Source of the DNA: Acidobacteriota bacterium
GTDB lineage: Bacteria; Acidobacteriota; Terriglobia; Terriglobales; Acidobacteriaceae
Reading direction: 5' to 3'
Assembly: GCA_021780415.1 (NCBI GenBank)
Contig: JAJXYW010000286.1
Span: 1 to 10,823, forward strand
DNA: 10,823 bases
The position numbers were made by a program, and so were the translations under genes. The notes beneath the pieces were generated by a model. The model was not told where the DNA came from and did no database searches. It saw only the letters and a list, made by a program, of their open reading frames with translations. Shown one piece after another: positions 564 to 8,714 of this stretch. How positions within the stretch are numbered: position 1 is the first letter of the stretch; every line of letters begins with the position of its first letter.

Positions 564-1184
564 CTATTTGATGACCTTCGCCTTGAGGGTGACCTTGCCC
601 CCTTTGGTCTGGACCGAGAAGGCCACGTCCGAGCCTTTGTACTTCTGGAGTATGGCCGCCTTCTGCTGGGCGAGGTGCTGCTCGAAGGAGGCGAGATCCC
701 ACTTGGGCACTTCGCCCTCCCTGAGCTTGGCGTTGACGAACTCCTCGAAGAGTGCCCGGGTGTGGCCTCCGCCTCCCGCGGGCGCCCGTTTCGCCTGGGC
801 AGGCGCCACAGGCGGCGGCTCAGGTACGGAGGCTGGAGGGAGGGGACGGCCCCTTTCCAGCTCCTGCAGCTCCCGCTTGGCTCGTCGGACCGACGCCAGC
901 AAACGCGGGTCCTGAACCAGCCCGTCCTCCCTGGCCCGCATCCACTTGTTCCACTGCTCGCACCGCATGACGTAGCTGCTGTTGAAGGTGGTGAAGCGGA
1001 ACTGTTGGGCGAGCCTGGGAAGGCTGGCGTTTCCGTAAGTCCTCACCAGCGCGTCCAGCTCCTTCTGCTCCTTGCGCGGGGGGTCGCGCCGCGCGCCGGC
1101 GAAGTAGAGGTCGTATTCGTGCTTCAGGATATTCAGCAAGGTCTCCATCCGCTGGATGTCCCGCTCGAAATCCATCTCGGGCAT
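564..1184 (-). CDS. MXAN_5187-like conserved protein of unknown function
   Basis: A 206-residue soluble protein with no signal peptide or membrane segment. Residues 1-110 are mainly charged helix: an N-terminal heptad-like stretch (about 5-25), a YxxYFxGxRRDPPRKEQKEL-like segment (24-43), then FRFTTFNSSYVMRCEQWNKW (62-81) and a further coiled-coil-like helix to 111. A Pro/Ala-rich linker (114-140) leads to a compact C-terminal domain (141-206) ending in a short beta-rich GGKVTLKAKVIK tail. This order matches my memory of proteins with the MXAN_5187 C-terminal domain from Myxococcota and relatives; no biochemical role is known to me. The start at 1182-1184 has GGGAG about 11 bases upstream; an in-frame ATG three codons later (residue 4) is an alternative start. 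It is divergent from gdhA and lies 112 bp upstream of metK on the same strand. Confidence 0.8.
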   Translation of the reverse strand: MPEMDFERDIQRMETLLNILKHEYDLYFAGARRDPPRKEQKELDALVRTYGNASLPRLAQQFRFTTFNSSYVMRCEQWNKWMRAREDGLVQDPRLLASVRRAKRELQELERGRPLPPASVPEPPPVAPAQAKRAPAGGGGHTRALFEEFVNAKLREGEVPKWDLASFEQHLAQQKAAILQKYKGSDVAFSVQTKGGKVTLKAKVIK

Positions 1185-1512: not shown

Positions 1513-1531
1513 ACCGCAAAGGAGAACAGTG

Positions 1532-2818
1532 ATGACGACCAAGCCCTTCAACCCGTTTGAGATGGCCCAGCAGCAATTCGACGCCGTGGCGGAGAGGCTG
1601 GGACTGGACCAGGCCACCCGCGACCTGCTGCGCACCCCGCTTCGTGAATACCACTTCAACATCCCGGTCCGCATGGACGACGGATCGTACAAGGTCTTTC
1701 ACGGCTTCCGCATCCAGCACAACGACGCGCGGGGCCCGTGCAAGGGCGGCATCCGCTTCCACCCCCACGAGACCGTGGACACGGTGCGCGCCCTGGCCAC
1801 GTGGATGACCTGGAAGTGCGCCGTGGTGGACATTCCCCTGGGCGGCGGCAAGGGCGGCGTCATCTGCGACCCGCACAACCTCTCCGACCGCGAGCAGGAA
1901 GCGCTCTGCCGCGGCTGGGTGCGCCAGGTGGCGCGGAACGTCGGCCCCACGCAGGACGTCCCCGCGCCGGATGTGATGACCAATGGACAGCACATGCTCT
2001 GGATGATGGACGAGCTGGAGAAGATCCGCGGCGAGAAGCTGCCCGGCTTCATCACGGGCAAGCCCGTGGGCATGGGCGGCTCCCTCGGACGCACCGAGGC
2101 CACCGGCCACGCCGTCATTTATACGGTCCGCGAAGCCATGAAGGAGCTGGGCATCGACATCAAGAAGTCCACCGCCTCCATCCAGGGCTCGGGCAACGTG
2201 GCCCAATATTCGGTGGACCTCTTCACGCAGTACGGCGGGAAGGTGATCGCCATCGCATGCTGGGACAACAACGACAAGAAGGCCTACACCTATCGCTCCG
2301 AGGCGGGCATCCAGTTCAACCAGCTCATGGCCGCCGTGGACAAATTCGGAACCATCAACCCCGCCAAGGCCAAGGAGTACGGCTGGCAGCAGCTCCCGGG
2401 CGACGCCTGGATCGAGCAGGAGGTGACCCTCCTCATCCCCGCGGCCCAAGAGGGCATGATCACCGGCGACAACGTGGGCAAGATCAAGCCCTCGGTCAAG
2501 ATCATCGCGGAGGGCGCCAACGGCCCCACGACGGTGGAGGCCGACAAGGTCCTCTTCGAGCGCGGCATTTTCGTTGTGCCCGACTTCCTCTGCAACGCCG
2601 GCGGGGTCACCTGCTCCTACTTCGAGCAGGTGCAGTGCAACATGAACTACTACTGGGAGAAGGAGGAGGTCTTGCAAAAGCTCGACCAGAAGATGACGAG
2701 CGCCTTCAAGGCCGTCTCCAAGCTCCACAGGGACAAGAAGATCTACATGCGCGACGCGGCCTACATGATCGCCATCTCGCGCGTGGCCGAGGCCTGCAAG
2801 CTGCGCGGCTGGGTGTAG
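1532..2818 (+). CDS. gdhA: Glutamate dehydrogenase, catalytically intact
   Basis: Interconverts glutamate and 2-oxoglutarate plus ammonia with NAD(P). It has 428 residues, normal for the short hexameric class. The N-terminal ELFV dehydrogenase domain is at about 38-170 and the nucleotide-binding domain at about 185-425. By alignment to the well-studied Clostridium symbiosum enzyme I see all key residues: Lys71 in GPCKGG (substrate side-chain carboxylate), Lys95 in MTWK, catalytic Lys107 in GGGKGG, catalytic Asp147 in PAPDV, and Ser362 in GGVTCSYFE. Lys71 with Ser362 favours glutamate over leucine, phenylalanine or valine. The Rossmann loop is GSGNVA (219-224), and EGANGPT (327-333) is intact. 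Coenzyme preference cannot be fixed by eye. The ATG at 1532 lies seven bases after GGAG; the GTG directly before it is spaced less well. A strong terminator closes the unit. Confidence 0.96.
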   Translation: MTTKPFNPFEMAQQQFDAVAERLGLDQATRDLLRTPLREYHFNIPVRMDDGSYKVFHGFRIQHNDARGPCKGGIRFHPHETVDTVRALATWMTWKCAVVDIPLGGGKGGVICDPHNLSDREQEALCRGWVRQVARNVGPTQDVPAPDVMTNGQHMLWMMDELEKIRGEKLPGFITGKPVGMGGSLGRTEATGHAVIYTVREAMKELGIDIKKSTASIQGSGNVAQYSVDLFTQYGGKVIAIACWDNNDKKAYTYRSEAGIQFNQLMAAVDKFGTINPAKAKEYGWQQLPGDAWIEQEVTLLIPAAQEGMITGDNVGKIKPSVKIIAEGANGPTTVEADKVLFERGIFVVPDFLCNAGGVTCSYFEQVQCNMNYYWEKEEVLQKLDQKMTSAFKAVSKLHRDKKIYMRDAAYMIAISRVAEACKLRGWV

Positions 2819-2843: not shown

Positions 2844-2875
2844 GGGGCCCGCCCTTGCCGGCGGGTCCCTTTTTT
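2844..2875 (+). terminator. intrinsic terminator after gdhA
   Basis: GGGGCCCGCC (2844-2853) pairs with GGCGGGTCCC (2860-2869) as a 10-bp stem with one G-U pair and a CTTGCC loop, followed at once by six T residues (2870-2875). It lies 25 bp past the gdhA stop and should separate gdhA transcription from the gene at 2958. Confidence 0.93.
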
Positions 2876-2922
2876 GCGCCCTAGCGCCCCGCCGGTTGCT
2901 GGCCCGGGGCACCGAGCTCCTG

Positions 2923-2928
2923 TATACT
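2923..2928 (+). promoter_or_regulatory. candidate -10 element for the PEP/pyruvate-binding gene
   Basis: TATACT, directly preceded by TG, lies 29 bp before the ATG at 2958 and after the gdhA terminator, so a promoter is expected about here. There is no good -35 at 17 bp; TTGCTG (2896-2901) is 21 bp away. The implied leader is about 20-25 nt and includes the GAGGGG ribosome site (2942-2947). Confidence 0.4.
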
Positions 2929-2957
2929 TCGGCCCATGGCAGAGGGGGAAGCGGTCC

Positions 2958-5714
2958 ATGACGGCAAAGAGCCGGGGCCAGGAGAGGCAGCTCCAGTGCC
3001 TGTTCCAGATCGCCGCGATCCTGGTGAACCCCGAATTCTCGATCCAGCAAGTCCTCGACCGGGTCATCAAGGCCCTTCCGCTGGGGCTTCGCCACCCGGA
3101 GGCCGGCCGGGTGAGGATCACCCTGGGCGAACGGGTTTTTGAATCAGAAGGGTTTGAAGAGACCCCGTGGAAGCTGCGGGCGCACCTCGTGGTCCACGGG
3201 AAGCTCGCGGGCAAGCTGGACGTCGTCTACCTGGAAAACCGCTCCCAATACGGGGAGAACCCCTTTCTCCTGGACGAGCGAAAGCTCGTGGAGATCACGG
3301 CGCAGAAGCTCGGTCCGGCCATTGAATCGCGGGAGAATGAGGGAAGGGCCGCCGGGTCTCCGGAAACGGCGGCCTCCACCACCCCATCCGACCACAAGCC
3401 CGAGTGGCGGACGATTCTGGACCTCATCCAGGAGACCGACAAGGCCCTCTACAAGCGTCTCGTCAGGAGGCTGATGAACCACCTGACAAAGCTGAACCTT
3501 CCCGCCATCCAGAAGATCATCACCCGCCTGGATCCGGCCGTCTACGCCGAAAGGGAACGCGATTCCTGGGGCTCCAACCAGCCTCTGCCCAAGCGGGACA
3601 TAGCAGTCCTCGATACGGCCTTCGAGGAGGTCATCAGGGTGGCCTCCACCACCATCCAGGAGCCGGAGCTGGCCCAGCTGATCAAGCAGTGGATGAAGCA
3701 GGACAAGCTCGGCTTCTTCGCCATGGCCATCGAAAGGCGGGATATCTCGCTCATCGAGATCTCCGATATCGTGAACCGCTTCTGCAGGGACACCAAGGAG
3801 GAGGAGCACGCCCTGTCTCACTCCGACGACATGAACGTGCGCGTGGCGCTGACCCGGCGCTTTCTCACCGACAGCCTCCCCTTCATCCGCGTCGCCAAGG
3901 AACACCTGACGGTGTATGACTTCGGCCGGATCCTGTCCAGGGTGGCTGGGCCCGGCCAGGGCAACGGGCGGCTGGGAGGCAAGGCGGCGGGGCTGATCCT
4001 GGCCGCGCACATTCTCGGCCGCCTCGGCAAGGACAATCCCCTCCTGTCCCATTTCAAGGTGCCTCACACCTGGTACATCGCCTCCGACGGAATGCTCGAC
4101 TTCGTACATTACAACTCGCTCGAGGACCTTCAGAGCTTCAAGTTCTCGAGCATCAGCGAGGTCCGGCACAACTATCCCTACATCGAACAGGTGTTCAAGC
4201 ACTCCTCCTTTTCGCTCGAGATGCTCAACCAGCTCAAGGTGGCCCTGGACGACCTGGGGGAGGGCCCTCTCATCGTCCGCTCCTCCAGCCTGCTGGAGGA
4301 CAGCCTCGGCACGGCCTTTTCGGGCAAGTACCGTAGCCTCTTCCTGGCCAACACCGGCTCCAAGCAGGAGCGCCTGGAGGCCCTAACCGACGCCGTGGCC
4401 GAGGTGTACGCCTCGATCTTCGGGCCCGACCCCATCCAGTACCGCGCCGAGCGTGGCCTGCTGGACTTCATGGAGGAGATGGGGGTCATCATCCAGCGCG
4501 TCGTCGGGCGGAGGATCGGCAAGTACTTCTTCCCTGCCTTCGCGGGCGTGGCCTTCTCCACCAACGAATTCCGTTGGTCGCCGAGGATCAAGCGGGAGGA
4601 CGGCATCCTCCGCATGGTCGCCGGGCTGGGCACCAGGGCCGTGGACCGGATCGGAGACGACTTCCCCGTCCTCGTGTCGCCGGGCCATCCCGATCTGCGG
4701 GTCAACGTGACGCCGGAGCAGGTCTTTCACTACGCGCAGCGGTACATCGACGTCATCAACCTGGAGACGGGAAGGTTCGAATCCGCGAGCATCGAGCGGA
4801 TCTTCCAGGAGGTCGGGGAGGAGTTCCCGCTCCTCGAGCGCATCGTCTCCATCTACGATGGGAGCTCCCTGCGTAGACCCATGCCGGGCTTGGTGGATCC
4901 CCGCGGGAGCGATCTGGTGGTGACCTTCGCGGGACTCATCGAGAGCACCGATTTCGTCCCTCAGATGCGCGAGATCATGCGCACCCTCCAGGCCACCATC
5001 GGCATGCCCGTGGATCTTGAATTCGCCCACGACGGGGAGTCGCTTCACCTTCTCCAGTGCCGGCCTCAGAGCAGGCTCGGGGACGAAGGGCCCGTCACGA
5101 TCCCCCACTGGATTCCTGAAAAGCGCAAGCTCTTCTCGGCCAAGAAGTACGTGACCAACGGGCAGGTCGGCGGCGTCCGTTACATCGTTTACGTGGATCC
5201 CGAGGCCTATTCGAAGTTGCCGAGCCACGACGACATGGTGCAGGTGGCCGATGCCATCAGCCGCCTCAACGGCATCCTCCCCCGCCGCTCCTTCATCCTC
5301 ATGGGCCCCGGGCGCTGGGGAAGCCGGGGCGACATTACCCTGGGAGTGGGGGTGACCTACTCGGGCATCAACAACACGCAGATGCTGATCGAAATCGCCC
5401 GCCGCAAGGGAAGCTACGTTCCCGACCTCTCCTTCGGAACCCATTTTTTCCAGGACCTCGTCGAGGCCAAGATACGCTACCTGGCTCTCTTCCCGGACGA
5501 GGATGGGATCATCTTCAACGAGGGCTTCTTTCGCGAGGTCTCCAACATGCTTCCCGTCCTGTTGCCCGAATACGGCCACCTTCAGCACGTGATCAGGGTG
5601 ATCGACGTCGAGCAAGCCTCCGGCGGGCTCGAGCTCCAGGTGATGATGGACGGGATCAAGGAGCAGGCCCTGGGATTCCTGGCGGAGAAGAGCGCCCCGA
5701 CTGTCTTTTCGTAG
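2958..5714 (+). CDS. GAF-like / PPDK_N (ATP-grasp) PEP/pyruvate-binding protein without a phosphohistidine domain
   Basis: A 918-residue cytoplasmic protein. Residues about 1-115 look like a GAF-like sensor segment (LFQIAAILVNPEFSIQQVLD near the start, then TPWKLRAHLVVHGKLAGKLD). A helical region (about 150-335) follows. The PPDK_N/ATP-grasp domain of PEP synthase and pyruvate phosphate dikinase spans about 339-705: LGGKAAG (339-345), VRSSSLLEDS (440-449, nucleotide-binding Arg441), VIIQRVVGRRIGKYFFPAFA, and the terminal LLQCRPQ around Arg702. The swivelling TxCHT-type phosphohistidine domain and the PEP-binding barrel are absent. A C-terminal region (about 706-918) carries MGPGRWGSRGD (782-792) and SFGTHFFQD (825-833), which I recall as conserved in this poorly characterised family. 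The start at 2958 has GAGGGG nine bases upstream; the frame stays open upstream but with no site. It probably binds or phosphorylates a ligand using ATP; substrate unknown. Confidence 0.88.
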   Translation: MTAKSRGQERQLQCLFQIAAILVNPEFSIQQVLDRVIKALPLGLRHPEAGRVRITLGERVFESEGFEETPWKLRAHLVVHGKLAGKLDVVYLENRSQYGENPFLLDERKLVEITAQKLGPAIESRENEGRAAGSPETAASTTPSDHKPEWRTILDLIQETDKALYKRLVRRLMNHLTKLNLPAIQKIITRLDPAVYAERERDSWGSNQPLPKRDIAVLDTAFEEVIRVASTTIQEPELAQLIKQWMKQDKLGFFAMAIERRDISLIEISDIVNRFCRDTKEEEHALSHSDDMNVRVALTRRFLTDSLPFIRVAKEHLTVYDFGRILSRVAGPGQGNGRLGGKAAGLILAAHILGRLGKDNPLLSHFKVPHTWYIASDGMLDFVHYNSLEDLQSFKFSSISEVRHNYPYIEQVFKHSSFSLEMLNQLKVALDDLGEGPLIVRSSSLLEDSLGTAFSGKYRSLFLANTGSKQERLEALTDAVAEVYASIFGPDPIQYRAERGLLDFMEEMGVIIQRVVGRRIGKYFFPAFAGVAFSTNEFRWSPRIKREDGILRMVAGLGTRAVDRIGDDFPVLVSPGHPDLRVNVTPEQVFHYAQRYIDVINLETGRFESASIERIFQEVGEEFPLLERIVSIYDGSSLRRPMPGLVDPRGSDLVVTFAGLIESTDFVPQMREIMRTLQATIGMPVDLEFAHDGESLHLLQCRPQSRLGDEGPVTIPHWIPEKRKLFSAKKYVTNGQVGGVRYIVYVDPEAYSKLPSHDDMVQVADAISRLNGILPRRSFILMGPGRWGSRGDITLGVGVTYSGINNTQMLIEIARRKGSYVPDLSFGTHFFQDLVEAKIRYLALFPDEDGIIFNEGFFREVSNMLPVLLPEYGHLQHVIRVIDVEQASGGLELQVMMDGIKEQALGFLAEKSAPTVFS

Positions 5715-5731: not shown

Positions 5732-5760
5732 TTGCACGGAGGAGAGGGTCTGACCATACT
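5732..5760 (+). promoter_or_regulatory. candidate promoter for the tandem GDH-like pair
   Basis: TTGCAC (5732-5737) and CATACT (5755-5760) are separated by exactly 17 bp, just after the stop of the upstream gene. The start of transcription would be near 5767, giving a leader of about 145 nt. The match is moderate. I see no intrinsic terminator between the gene ending at 5714 and this site, so read-through is also possible. Confidence 0.45.
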
Positions 5761-5900: not shown

Positions 5901-5915
5901 GGAGGCTCGGCTTTG
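5901..5915 (+). promoter_or_regulatory. ribosome binding site that decides a TTG start
   Basis: GGAGG (5901-5905) lies seven bases before TTG (5913-5915). This start gives an N terminus colinear with the paralogue at 7165 (a conserved NFPVKMDD block at residue 34 versus 38). The only earlier candidate in the frame, GTG at 5814, has no comparable site and would add 33 residues unlike any GDH. Confidence 0.75.
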
Positions 5916-7151
5916 GACGTTCGAGACTGCTTCGAAAGGGCCGCCGATCTCGCGGGGTTGTCCCCCGGCGTCCGGCGCCTGCTCGCCCTGCCCTGCGACG
6001 AGCTGACCCTCAACTTTCCCGTCAAGATGGACGACGAGTCGGTGGAGACCTTCCGTGGGTTTCGCGTGCACCACAACGACGCCCTGGGACCCTACCTGGG
6101 AGGGCTCCGTTACCACCCCTCGGTGACCCTCAAGGCCATGCGGACTCAGGCCGCGCAGAGAACCTGGCAGGCCGCCCTGGCGGGCCTCCCCTTCGGGGGC
6201 TCCATGGGGGGGATTCAGCTGGATCCCTCCCGCCACACGCTGTCGGAGCTGGAGCGGATCACGCGCCGCTTCGTGTTCGCCCTGGGCAACAACATCGGGC
6301 CGGACTACGACGTTCTCACGACGGAGGTCAACACGAACAGCCAGATCATGAGCTGGGTCCTGGACACCTACTTTTCCACCGTGCCGCCCCAGGAGAGAAA
6401 CCGCGCCTTCCCGGTGGTCACCGGCAAACCGCTGGAGGCGGGGGGGCTCCCGGGGCGAAACCGCGCGGTGGGTCTGGGCATGGCCATGCTCATCGAGCGC
6501 TGGGCGAGCGATCACGCCGTAGATCTCGCCGCCTCGACCTACACCCTCCAGGGATTCGGAACGGTAGGCTCCTCGGTGGCGCGAGTCCTCCAGTCCAAGG
6601 GCGCCAGGCTGCTGGCCGTGGAGGACGTGACCGGAGCCGTATCCCATCCGGGCGGCATCGATGCGGAAGACCTGTTCGCTTACTCCAGACGGCGCTTCGG
6701 TCTGCGGGGCTACCCGAGGGCAACCCCCCTCAGCCACGAGGCCTTCCTGCGCACTCCGGCCACGATCTTCATTCCGGCCGCCCTGGCCACGGGCTTCACG
6801 AGCGAGTTGCTGGAGCTCCTGGACGTGCGCCTCGTGGCCGAGGGTGCTTGCATCCTGACCGAACCGGGGATGGACGACGTGCTCCGGCGAAAGGGAACGG
6901 ACCTTCTGCCCGACGTGCTCTGCACCGCGGGAGGAGCCACCGCCAGCTACTTCGAGTGGCTCCAGAACAAGCGCGGCGAACGGTGGGAGCTCGAGGAGGT
7001 GGAGAAGCGCCTTCAGGACACGCTCTACCGCGCCTACGACCGGGTGGCGAGGGCCTCCCAGGAGTTCGGCGCCGATTGGAGAACCACCAGCGTGGCCCTC
7101 GCTCTGGGGGATCTGGAGGGGGTCTACAGAGACCGGGGATTCTTCCCCTGA
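5913..7151 (+). CDS. Catalytically dead glutamate dehydrogenase paralogue 1 (putative regulatory subunit)
   Basis: A 412-residue protein of the Glu/Leu/Phe/Val dehydrogenase family, colinear with gdhA at 1532. Fold elements are kept: the NFPVKMDD block (34-41), GPYLGGLRYHP (59-69), LPFGGSMGG (92-100), the Rossmann loop GFGTVG (214-219) and AGGATASYFEW (339-349). Active-site residues are not: the substrate Lys is Leu62, the second Lys is Gln86, the catalytic Lys is Met98, the catalytic Asp is Glu138, and EGAN becomes EGAC (310-313). Ser345, a glutamate-enzyme residue, stays. No frameshift or internal stop is present and coding character is normal, so this is a selected gene and not a decaying one. 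It is most likely an inactive regulatory partner, possibly still binding nucleotide or amino acid. It is the first gene of a two-gene unit, 13 bp before its sister. Confidence 0.9.
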   Translation: MDVRDCFERAADLAGLSPGVRRLLALPCDELTLNFPVKMDDESVETFRGFRVHHNDALGPYLGGLRYHPSVTLKAMRTQAAQRTWQAALAGLPFGGSMGGIQLDPSRHTLSELERITRRFVFALGNNIGPDYDVLTTEVNTNSQIMSWVLDTYFSTVPPQERNRAFPVVTGKPLEAGGLPGRNRAVGLGMAMLIERWASDHAVDLAASTYTLQGFGTVGSSVARVLQSKGARLLAVEDVTGAVSHPGGIDAEDLFAYSRRRFGLRGYPRATPLSHEAFLRTPATIFIPAALATGFTSELLELLDVRLVAEGACILTEPGMDDVLRRKGTDLLPDVLCTAGGATASYFEWLQNKRGERWELEEVEKRLQDTLYRAYDRVARASQEFGADWRTTSVALALGDLEGVYRDRGFFP

Positions 7152-7164
7152 CGGGAGGGGTGCC

Positions 7165-8415
7165 ATGACGAGCTACGACGAAGCGCTCCGCCAGCTCAAC
7201 CAGGCCGCCGAACGCATGGGCCTGGACCCGGACGTGCGCAAGATCCTTTCCCAGACCGCCAGCGAGATCACCGTAAACTTTCCCGTCAAGATGGACGACG
7301 GAGAGGTCCGCATGTTCACCGGCCACCTGGCGCAGCACAACAACGTCCTCGGGCCCTTCGCGGGGGGGCTGCGCTACCAGGAGGCGGTGGACACGGACGA
7401 CGTCAGGGCTCTGGCGATCCGGATGACCTGGAAACACGCGGTTCTCGGACTGCCCTTCGGCGGCGCCATGGGCGGTGTGGACGTGGACCCGCTGCGATGC
7501 TCTCCGGCCGAACTGGAGCGCGCCACCCGGCGCTTCACCTTCGGTCTGGGCGGCAATATCGGTCCCGAGTACGGCGTGCTCTGCCCCGAATTGGGCACCG
7601 ACGGACAGATCATGGCCTGGATCCTGGATACCTATGCCTCGACCATGTCGCCCCACGAGCGAAACCTCTGCCGCCACGTGGTCATGGGCAAGCCCGCGAC
7701 CCTGGGAGGAAGCGCGGGGCGGGAGCAGGCGGCCGGCCAGGCCGTCGCGATCATGCTCGCTGAGTGGGCGCGGAACGAGCAGCTGGACCTGAGGCAGGCG
7801 ACCTTCTTCGTCCAGGGCTTTGGAGCCACCGGCTCCTGGGCGGCCCGCCTCCTGGCGGTGCGCGGGGCGCGCCTCCTGGCCGTGGAGGATGCCAGCGGCG
7901 CCATCGCCCATCCGGACGGCATCGATCCCGGCGATCTGGACTCCTTTGCTCGCCAGCACGGGGGCATCACGGGCTATCCCCAAGCCACCCCCACGGACCA
8001 CGCCGGCTTCCTCTCAACACGGGCGGACATCTTCATTCCCGCCTCACCGCAGAAGCCCGTTTCGCGGGACTGCGCCTCCATGCTGAGGGTCCGGGTCGTG
8101 GCGGAGGCTGCCGACTCCCTCACCGACCGCGAGGCAGAGGCCCTGCTCCAGGAGAGGGGCATCCAGGTCCTGCCGGACCTTCTCTGCCATTCGGGCGACA
8201 CCATCGTCTACTACTACGAATGGCTTCAAAACCGCAGAAGCGAAAGATGGGAGGCGGAGGAGGTCGGCTCAAAGATGCGCCGCCTCCTCCTCTCGGTCTA
8301 CGAAGAGGCCCGCGGCATCGCTTCCGAACTCCAGACCGACCTGCGTTCGGCCGCCCTCATAGCGGGTCTCCGCAGGATCGAAACGGCCTATCTCAAGCGG
8401 GGCATCTTCCCCTGA
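7165..8415 (+). CDS. Catalytically dead glutamate dehydrogenase paralogue 2 (putative regulatory subunit)
   Basis: A 416-residue sister of the preceding gene. Shared features absent from gdhA include GGLRY, LPFGGxMGG, an ARLLAVEDxxGAxxHPxGID block (residues 235-254 here) and YEWLQNxRxERWE (351-363), so the two arose from one already-altered ancestor. Relative to gdhA the substrate Lys is Ala66, the catalytic Lys is Met102, the catalytic Asp is Glu142, and the Ser of the glutamate pocket is Tyr349. Lys90 in MTWK is retained, and the Rossmann loop is GFGATG (218-223). EGAN becomes EAAD (314-317) and the GG before the pocket becomes GD (344-345). ATG at 7165 follows GGGAGGGG by four bases, 13 bp after the previous stop, so the two are surely co-transcribed. 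A role as a non-catalytic subunit is inferred, not shown. Confidence 0.9.
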   Translation: MTSYDEALRQLNQAAERMGLDPDVRKILSQTASEITVNFPVKMDDGEVRMFTGHLAQHNNVLGPFAGGLRYQEAVDTDDVRALAIRMTWKHAVLGLPFGGAMGGVDVDPLRCSPAELERATRRFTFGLGGNIGPEYGVLCPELGTDGQIMAWILDTYASTMSPHERNLCRHVVMGKPATLGGSAGREQAAGQAVAIMLAEWARNEQLDLRQATFFVQGFGATGSWAARLLAVRGARLLAVEDASGAIAHPDGIDPGDLDSFARQHGGITGYPQATPTDHAGFLSTRADIFIPASPQKPVSRDCASMLRVRVVAEAADSLTDREAEALLQERGIQVLPDLLCHSGDTIVYYYEWLQNRRSERWEAEEVGSKMRRLLLSVYEEARGIASELQTDLRSAALIAGLRRIETAYLKRGIFP

Positions 8416-8632: not shown

Positions 8633-8661
8633 TTGACACCCACTATATGTTGCGCTATATT
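8633..8661 (+). promoter_or_regulatory. strong sigma70-like promoter of nrdJ
   Basis: A perfect TTGACA (8633-8638) and TATATT (8656-8661) are separated by exactly 17 bp. The predicted start near 8668 leaves a leader of about 95 nt. An NrdR-like box fills most of the spacer and a second one covers the region just after the start, so the promoter would be blocked by a bound repressor. Confidence 0.85.
8640..8655 (+). promoter_or_regulatory. NrdR box 1
   Basis: The core CTATATGTTG (8643-8652) matches the NrdR consensus core CWATATATWG at 9 of 10 positions. It lies between the -35 and -10 elements of the nrdJ promoter. NrdR is the ATP/dATP-sensing repressor of ribonucleotide reductase genes in many bacteria. 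Confidence 0.75.
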
Positions 8662-8670
8662 ACCCCTGCT

Positions 8671-8686
8671 TAGCTAAATATAGGGG
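8671..8686 (+). promoter_or_regulatory. NrdR box 2
   Basis: The core CTAAATATAG (8674-8683) matches CWATATATWG at 9 of 10 positions. Its core begins exactly 31 bp after that of box 1, three helical turns, which is the usual arrangement of paired NrdR boxes and puts both on one face of the DNA. Confidence 0.75.
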
Positions 8687-8714
8687 TGTCCTGGGGCATA
8701 AGCCCTTTGGACAC
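8686..8714 (+). promoter_or_regulatory. stem-loop in the nrdJ leader
   Basis: GTGTCC (8686-8691) pairs with GGACAC (8709-8714), and inside it GGGC (8694-8697) pairs with GCCC (8702-8705) around an ATAA loop. It lies about 20 nt after the predicted start and before the ribosome site AAGGGAGGT (8747-8755). Its function is unknown; it is too small for a cobalamin riboswitch. Confidence 0.4.

What the first reader, a model, noticed from the sequence alone, without database searches (positions are those of the whole stretch)
5913..8415. Tandem pair of glutamate dehydrogenase pseudoenzymes beside an intact gdhA
Both proteins keep the full GDH fold and a GxGxxG nucleotide loop, but both replace the catalytic Lys with Met (98 and 102) and the catalytic Asp with Glu (138 and 142). 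The frames are intact with no internal stops, so selection is keeping them for something other than GDH catalysis. The nearest known parallel is Thermus thermophilus, where a regulatory GDH homologue partners a catalytic one. Here there are two different dead paralogues plus one live one, which would allow a three-component allosteric enzyme or a stand-alone amino-acid/nucleotide sensor. This is the best candidate for an undescribed system in the window.
Basis: partly seen in the sequence, partly recalled or inferred. Interest (0 to 1): 0.82.

Follow-up and report, generated by a model that had tools for sequence, protein, structure and literature searches.

The report
Paired dead glutamate dehydrogenases as regulators
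In an uncultured acidobacterium, two neighbouring genes make proteins shaped like the enzyme glutamate dehydrogenase but lacking its key catalytic lysine; they are kept by selection and were inserted near the cell's working version, so they probably regulate it.

Summary
L1 (5913-7151) and L2 (7165-8415) are intact, full-length GDH-fold proteins. The catalytic Lys is Met98/Met102 and the catalytic Asp is Glu138/Glu142; L1 has also lost the other two active-site lysines. gdhA (1529-2818) is intact and is the only other GDH gene found in the two nearest genomes.

New here: (1) L1 and L2 are sister families (26 listed proteins) nested inside live GDHs. Lys loss is general in both; Asp-to-Glu is 14 of 14 in L2 but 3 of 12 in L1. 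(2) Selection is purifying (dN/dS about 0.05 and 0.15). (3) They form a two-gene insert between a gdhA-linked PPDK-like gene and nrdJ, absent from order relatives. (4) Lys-to-Met GDH paralogues do not form one clade; 9 of 12 found in Planctomycetota overlap a live GDH gene.

Best reading: non-catalytic, ligand-binding GDH-type subunits that regulate the GDH step, as Thermus GdhA does, but doubled. Hexamers, leucine binding and contact with GdhA are inference. GdhA is 32% identical and lacks the leucine-site Arg, so Thermus-style mixing is possible but not favoured. New variant of a known kind.

The parts
1529..2818 (+). gdhA, live-type GDH (GTG start); Lys/Lys/Lys/Asp intact; best PDB matches are Thermococcales GDHs
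2874..5714 (+). PPDK_N (ATP-binding) protein whose N-terminal part resembles the sensor region of two histidine kinases; likely start ATG 2958; follows gdhA in order relatives
5732..5760 (+). possible promoter of L1-L2: TTGCAC, 17 nt, CATACT; same in L001 and L002. Read by eye; the scan did not report it
5913..7151 (+). L1 pseudo-GDH (TTG start, GGAGG upstream); Leu62, Gln86, Met98, Glu138
7165..8415 (+). L2 pseudo-GDH (ATG start); Ala66, Lys90, Met102, Glu142
8633..8661 (+). sigma-70-like promoter ahead of the nrdJ-like ORF, homologous in three relatives without L1-L2; the insert ends 5' of it

Best explanation
L1 and L2 are a two-gene insert, probably acquired horizontally, of catalytically dead GDH paralogues. 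Most likely they assemble, mainly with each other, into a GDH-type hexamer that can still bind small ligands (an amino acid at the conserved leucine site and/or in the remodelled active-site cleft, a dinucleotide in the Rossmann domain) but cannot oxidise glutamate. The liganded complex then regulates the GDH step, its likeliest target being GdhA, the only live-type GDH seen in the nearest genomes. Shown: loss of the catalytic Lys, GDH fold by sequence, purifying selection, pair linkage, insertion beside gdhA and its PPDK-like neighbour, and Lys-to-Met GDH paralogues of separate clades beside live GDHs elsewhere. Inferred: loss of activity, hexamer, ligand, target, direction of regulation.
For: At the catalytic Lys, 25 of 26 L1/L2 rows have Met and 1 Val, against Lys in all 244 other listed relatives (the lists are the best 120 of each search). 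L1 has Leu/Met at the substrate-carboxylate Lys and Gln at the second Lys in 12 of 12; Leu there is the LeuDH state (alignment; PMC2723916 passages). Leucine-site Arg and Asp are kept in 12 of 12 L1 and 14 of 14 L2 rows, the Arg aligning with Thermus GdhB R135. dN/dS 0.05 and 0.15. L1 and L2 are sister clades (SH-aLRT 99, 99, joined 93) inside live-type GDHs. Five contigs probably carry one of each. Insert beside gdhA-PPDK, absent in order relatives; no fourth PF00208 gene in G001/G002. In Planctomycetota 10 of 11 L(K/R)MD paralogues lie next to a live-type GDH gene, 8 overlapping it by 8 nt and one by 17. One clade for all Met-type rows is rejected (AU p 0.00057).
Against: No biochemistry. 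gdhA is 32% identical and lacks the leucine-site Arg (Gly129), so contact is not implied by similarity. All 244 live-type relatives keep the leucine site too, so it is ancestral, not gained; the L2 of L002 has Asn for the site's Asp. L2's dN/dS is about three times L1's and its substrate-Lys position varies freely. L1 and L2 distances over six pairs correlate only moderately (Mantel r 0.50, 29 of 720 permutations as high). P0005, P0015 (L1) and P0133 (L2), on contigs over 5 kb, had no listed partner. Five Acidobacteriota Met-type paralogues stand alone within the fetched stretch, so a neighbouring live GDH is not the rule everywhere. Whether another Lys could fill the site was not tested in 3D: the L1 model is weak (pLDDT 69.9) and residues 130-172 of L2 are under 50.
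Confidence: 0.4

Rival explanations
1. Three-component enzyme, the reader's idea: L1 and L2 enter mixed hexamers with GdhA itself, as the regulatory GdhA does with GdhB in Thermus.
For: The only live-type GDH of the two nearest genomes is one gene away; dead/live pairs of 43-49% identity, mostly overlapping, occur in Planctomycetota; mixing of an inactive and a live subunit is known in Thermus (PMC9570180 passages).
Against: gdhA is 32% identical to L1 and L2 and closest to archaeal GDHs; its C-terminus and leucine-site Arg differ; in order relatives gdhA stands without L1/L2; L1-L2 may have their own promoter.
Confidence: 0.25
2. Stand-alone sensor: L1-L2 bind an amino acid or nucleotide and act on something other than GDH, for example the PPDK-like protein or expression of the nrdJ-like gene.
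For: Possible transcription unit of their own between the PPDK-like gene and nrdJ; the L1 pocket is changed in the same way across its family.
Against: Insertion beside the only GDH locus of a genome of about 3.4 Mb would be a coincidence; no Pfam domain besides the GDH ones passes its cut-off in L1 or L2.
Confidence: 0.17
3. Changed catalysis: L1 and/or L2 run a different reaction, for example on a hydrophobic oxo or imino acid, without the lysine.
For: Rossmann loop GxGxxG in all 12 L1 rows and 13 of 14 L2 rows; L1 keeps Asp in 9 of 12 and the Ser in 12 of 12; Leu at K89 is the LeuDH state.
Against: LeuDH keeps both other lysines (alignment); L1 keeps none of the three; Met at this place recurs in other clades beside live-type GDHs.
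Confidence: 0.1
4. Decaying relics on the way to loss.
For: L2 has dN/dS about 0.15 and several changed pocket residues; the pair was seen in 2 of 396 Acidobacteriota genomes.
Against: Open frames in window, L001 and L002; dN/dS far below 1; Met kept across deep branches.
Confidence: 0.04

Closest known systems
Thermus thermophilus GdhA/GdhB hetero-hexameric GDH (PDB 3AOE), with a TTC1249-encoded AMP-sensing partner (PMC9570180 passages; that partner is a dead APRT homologue by the title of reference 20)
   Same: A GDH paralogue inactive in catalysis acts with a live GDH; leucine-site Arg and Asp conserved; same fold (Foldseek TM 0.78 of the L2 model to 3aoe_A).
   Different: Two distinct dead paralogues, sister to each other and not to the local live GDH; Lys-to-Met; an insert in relatives' gdhA-PPDK-nrdJ order; the extra gene is PPDK_N-like. 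Active-site residues of Thermus GdhA could not be read here.
Planctomycetota GDH pairs seen here (live-type plus L(K/R)MD)
   Same: Lys-to-Leu and Lys-to-Met paralogue beside a live-type GDH.
   Different: Not one clade with L1/L2 (AU p 3.8e-7 for L1+L2+LKMD+QTMD held together); one dead gene, not two; genes mostly overlap.
Leucine dehydrogenase
   Same: Leu at the substrate-carboxylate Lys position in 10 of 12 L1 rows.
   Different: LeuDH keeps the other two lysines; L1 has Gln and Met, and keeps the GDH Ser in 12 of 12.
Staphylococcus aureus YwlG (PMC9522360 passages)
   Same: Proposed there as possible pseudo-GDH or stimulator of a GDH.
   Different: 174 aa, half-size, about 11% identical to GudB; a different family; role unproven.
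Trypanosomatid deoxyhypusine synthase with a dead paralogue (PMC3663545; title and abstract start in the listing)
   Same: A dead paralogue activates its partner in a hetero-oligomer.
   Different: Unrelated enzyme.

Membership tests
ELFV / glutamate dehydrogenase fold family | Matches to PF02812 and PF00208 above cut-off | tested here: met
   Both proteins, E 1e-42 or better for each domain.
Catalytically competent glutamate dehydrogenase | Catalytic Lys and Asp, substrate-binding lysines | tested here: not met
   L1 Leu/Gln/Met/Glu, L2 Ala/Lys/Met/Glu; gdhA Lys/Lys/Lys/Asp. Activity itself not testable here.
Leucine dehydrogenase | Leu at the K89 position with the two other lysines kept | tested here: not met
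   L1 has the Leu but Gln and Met for the lysines.
Thermus-type regulatory GDH subunit | Paralogue inactive in catalysis, working with a live GDH | tested here: inconclusive
   Inactivity inferred from residues; gdhA lies in the same locus with one gene between.
Thermus-type regulatory GDH subunit | Leucine-site residues (Thermus R135 and D166) | tested here: met
   Arg119/Asp151 in L1, Arg123/Asp155 in L2; 12 of 12 and 14 of 14 rows, but Asn in the L2 of L002. Arg aligns to GdhB R135; the Asp to chain index 167, against 166 in the paper.
Thermus-type regulatory GDH subunit | Forms a mixed hexamer with the live subunit | not testable with these tools
   Needs co-purification.
Thermus-type regulatory GDH subunit | Same active-site changes as Thermus GdhA | not tested
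   3aoe_E was listed but its sequence never displayed; the two Thermus papers asked for are not held.

The most novel reading that the evidence does not exclude
A transferable allosteric module: two dead GDH sisters that form a hexamer of their own, read leucine-like amino acids and nucleotides, and gate the host's distantly related GDH, perhaps together with the gdhA-linked ATP-binding PPDK-like protein. On this reading Met at the catalytic Lys is a repeated evolutionary route by which bacteria turn a GDH copy into a regulator.
Probability: 0.2. Interest if true: 0.75.

Novelty: new variant of a known kind. Interest (0 to 1): 0.55.

Why it matters
Regulation of GDH by a dead full-length paralogue is, to my knowledge, worked out for Thermus only. 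Here one strict DNA pattern found Lys-to-Met GDH paralogues in 20 of 984 genomes searched in five phyla, in three of the five; G001, G002 and G399 among these 20 were known to carry one beforehand. Seven of the 24 L1/L2 rows other than the window's own bear the database name glutamate dehydrogenase (NAD(P)+), a function their residues contradict. The system also makes testable how a pseudoenzyme gene pair can be moved and attached to a foreign enzyme.

Tried and rejected
Search of the window's own genome: none held. Origin of L1/L2 by duplication of the local gdhA: not supported by the tree. One clade for all Lys-to-Met rows: rejected. Thermus GdhA residues: not obtained. Plasmid search: 506 records, all under 60% identity, none followed. 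Exact direct repeat of 9-14 nt flanking the insert: none found. Profile search with L1+L2: the 53 newly listed proteins are all live-type. Literature on dead GDH paralogues (open-licence papers only): in the titles and abstract starts listed I saw none beyond Thermus and the YwlG proposal (passages); other papers were not read through.

A count labelled 'R135 eq' is of the neighbouring Arg; one search gives the right column. only printed a number.
Full report
What is there. The window reads, left to right: metK (minus strand, cut), an unnamed 206-aa ORF (minus), gdhA (1529-2818), a PPDK_N protein (2874-5714, probable start ATG 2958), L1 (5913-7151), L2 (7165-8415) and a long ORF from 8715 that runs off the window (MetK and the NrdJ-type reductase are my reading of the translations and were not scanned). 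No tRNA. L1 and L2 carry both ELFV domains. Their best NCBIfam models are GDH models, all three proteins, gdhA included, scoring below the curated cut-offs. Two Acidobacteria MAGs hold the same locus in the same order gdhA, PPDK-like, L1, L2: L001 (JAJYLT010000003.1) and L002 (JAJYCJ010000048.1). In both genomes (G001, G002) these are the only three PF00208 genes, so GdhA is the only live-type GDH if the MAGs are complete, which is not known.

Active sites. With gdhA as ruler the four positions (K89, K113, K125, D165 in C. symbiosum numbering, recalled) read Lys/Lys/Lys/Asp in gdhA, Leu/Gln/Met/Glu in L1, Ala/Lys/Met/Glu in L2. The Arabidopsis GDH1 paper gives Lys102 and Asp142 the catalytic roles (section 10 read), the numbers of L2 Met102 and Glu142. 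Of 218 proteins aligned (219 held, the PPDK-like one left out), 192 have Lys at the catalytic position, 25 Met, 1 Val. The 26 without Lys split into L1 (12 rows) and L2 (14 rows), the window's two and close copies P0005 and P0125 (95% identical) included; P0015 and P0017 are also near-copies. In L1: K89 is Leu 10, Met 2; K113 is Gln 12; K125 is Met 11, Val 1; D165 is Asp 9, Glu 3; the S380-type Ser is kept in 12 of 12. In L2: K89 takes six residues; K113 is Lys in 12 of 14; K125 is Met 14 of 14; D165 is Glu 14 of 14; the Ser is replaced in 14 of 14. Of 160 columns at least 97% conserved in 191 live-type relatives, L1 keeps 90 and L2 111 by the thresholds. L1 thus looks like a remodelled, more hydrophobic pocket, L2 like a pocket freed of substrate binding. 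Leu at the K89 place is what leucine dehydrogenases have (alignment; PMC2723916 passages). A profile search listed 53 further proteins, all live-type, so the two families look small; only the best 120 of 6432 hits were listed.

Selection. Against L001 and L002, dN/dS (NG86) is 0.041/0.037 for gdhA, 0.048/0.058 for L1, 0.151/0.155 for L2, 0.072/0.086 for the PPDK-like gene, 0.081/0.081 for the nrdJ-like part. Both pseudoenzymes are under purifying selection, L2 more weakly.

The pair. P0005, P0015 and P0133 had no listed partner. That the contigs are the same is inferred. In the tree (93 rows, four active-site columns removed, quick method) L1 and L2 are each a clade (99, 99) and sisters (93), inside live-type GDHs. 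Distance matrices of six pairs correlate with r 0.50 (29 of 720 permutations as high): weak support for joint descent.

An insert. In 13 genomes of the same order the PPDK-like protein was found in 8. Of the six besides G001 and G002, five have gdhA, or part of it (G092, G128), directly before it (also G110, G101, G046). Three have the nrdJ homologue directly after it with no L1/L2 between (G046, G128, G004). G092 and G110 have 1.6-1.8 kb after it without L1/L2 or nrdJ; the contig of G101 ends there; the contig of G004 begins inside the PPDK-like gene. At E 1e-138 the L1 profile matched only G001 and G002 of the 13 genomes of the class. Among 396 Acidobacteriota genomes the L2 profile gave matches in 373; of the 30 best loci opened only those of G001 and G002 are L2, the other 28 live-type, including two that score highly (G145, G072). 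The promoter at 8633-8661 is homologous in G128, G004 and G046, so the insert lies between the PPDK stop and it. TTGCAC-17-CATACT at 5732-5760, unchanged in L001 and L002 in a spacer that differs around it, may drive L1-L2; the scan did not report it. Since L1/L2 do not descend from gdhA, arrival of both beside the only GDH locus is unlikely by chance and points to a GDH-linked role. No donor was identified.

Not unique. The pattern for PFGGxMGG matched 13 of 392 Planctomycetota genomes (12 with a GDH ORF at the match, one without), 12 of 396 Acidobacteriota (7 with: G001, G002, G165, G124, G097, G052, G064; five without), 1 of 17 of the phylum of G399 (G399), 1 of 132 of the phylum of Zixibacteria G398 (no GDH ORF), 0 of 47 of the phylum of G397. 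It misses Lys losses spelled otherwise. In Planctomycetota 11 of the 12 read Leu-Lys/Arg-Met-Asp and one Lys-Lys-Met-Asp without a live GDH in the fetched 19.5 kb. Ten of the 11 sit next to a live-type GDH gene: 8 overlap by 8 nt, one by 17 nt by first-start calls, one has a 204-nt gap and an odd live-type ORF; the eleventh begins at a contig end. Nine of the ten pairs are 43-49% identical over at least 411 residues, the odd one 44% over 284. The five other Acidobacteriota read Gln/His-Thr-Met-Asp and stand alone within about 10 kb on each side. G399 has a live-type plus Lys-Lys-Met-Asp tandem, G398 a live-type plus Glu-Lys-Ser-Asp tandem. Holding all 44 Met-type rows together is rejected (p-AU 0.00057), likewise L1+L2 with the two other large groups (3.8e-7); the fewest changes of state are 4, reversals counted alike. 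The tree has some long branches.

Leucine site. In Thermus GDH, R135 and D166 bind the leucine (PMC9570180 passages). GdhB R135 aligns with L2 Arg123; the Asp of DTY is chain index 167 in the displayed alignment, one off the paper's number. Both are kept in 12 of 12 L1, 14 of 14 L2 and 244 of 244 live-type rows, so retention is ancestral. gdhA has Gly129 for the Arg, keeps the Asp, and ends RGWV instead of RG(I/F)FP. The L2 of L002 has Asn for the Asp.

Structure. The L2 model (14-row alignment) has mean pLDDT 80.5 and matches T. maritima GDH 1b26 (TM 0.80, rmsd 5.5) and Thermus 3aoe_A (0.78); residues 130-172, which include Glu142, are under 50. The L1 model is weaker (69.9) and was not searched. 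They support the fold, not the pocket.

Mechanism. Shown by sequence: dead-looking sites, selection, linkage, insertion near gdhA. Inferred: that the proteins are inactive, oligomerise, bind a ligand and act on GdhA. I favour an L1-L2 hexamer acting on the GDH step (0.40) over direct three-way mixing with GdhA (0.25), because GdhA is distant and differs at the leucine site, while L1 and L2 (46% identical) are about as alike as the Planctomycetota partners.

Known or new. An inactive regulatory GDH subunit is known in Thermus, and YwlG of S. aureus, a different and half-size family, has been proposed as a possible pseudo-GDH. Two sister dead families as one insert and the recurrent Met were not seen in the titles and abstract starts listed, which cover open-licence papers only.

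Noticed in passing
window 2874-5714; L005 1-1755; L179 3122-5911: About residues 25-156 of the gdhA-linked PPDK_N protein resemble (26-34% identity) a region of histidine kinases that, with a sigma-54 response regulator, precede GDH genes in G399 and G145: a possibly shared sensor near GDH genes.
   Followed up: partly
   Followed up: partly
   Followed up: partly
L004 1-2465 (same stretch as L178 929-3393): Zixibacteria tandem of a live-type GDH and a 79% identical paralogue with Glu-Lys-Ser-Asp, so a rather recent loss of the Lys.
   Followed up: no
L164 9207-10460: Single Planctomycetota GDH homologue with Lys-Lys-Met-Asp; long branch in the tree.
   Followed up: no
window 8633-8700: Strong sigma-70-like promoter and AT-rich repeated boxes ahead of the nrdJ-like ORF, conserved in three order relatives; the boxes look like NrdR sites (name recalled, not tested).
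   Followed up: no
window 564-1184 (minus): 206-aa protein without a Pfam match, also upstream of gdhA in L001 and, as a 33-residue piece at a contig end, in G101.
   Followed up: no
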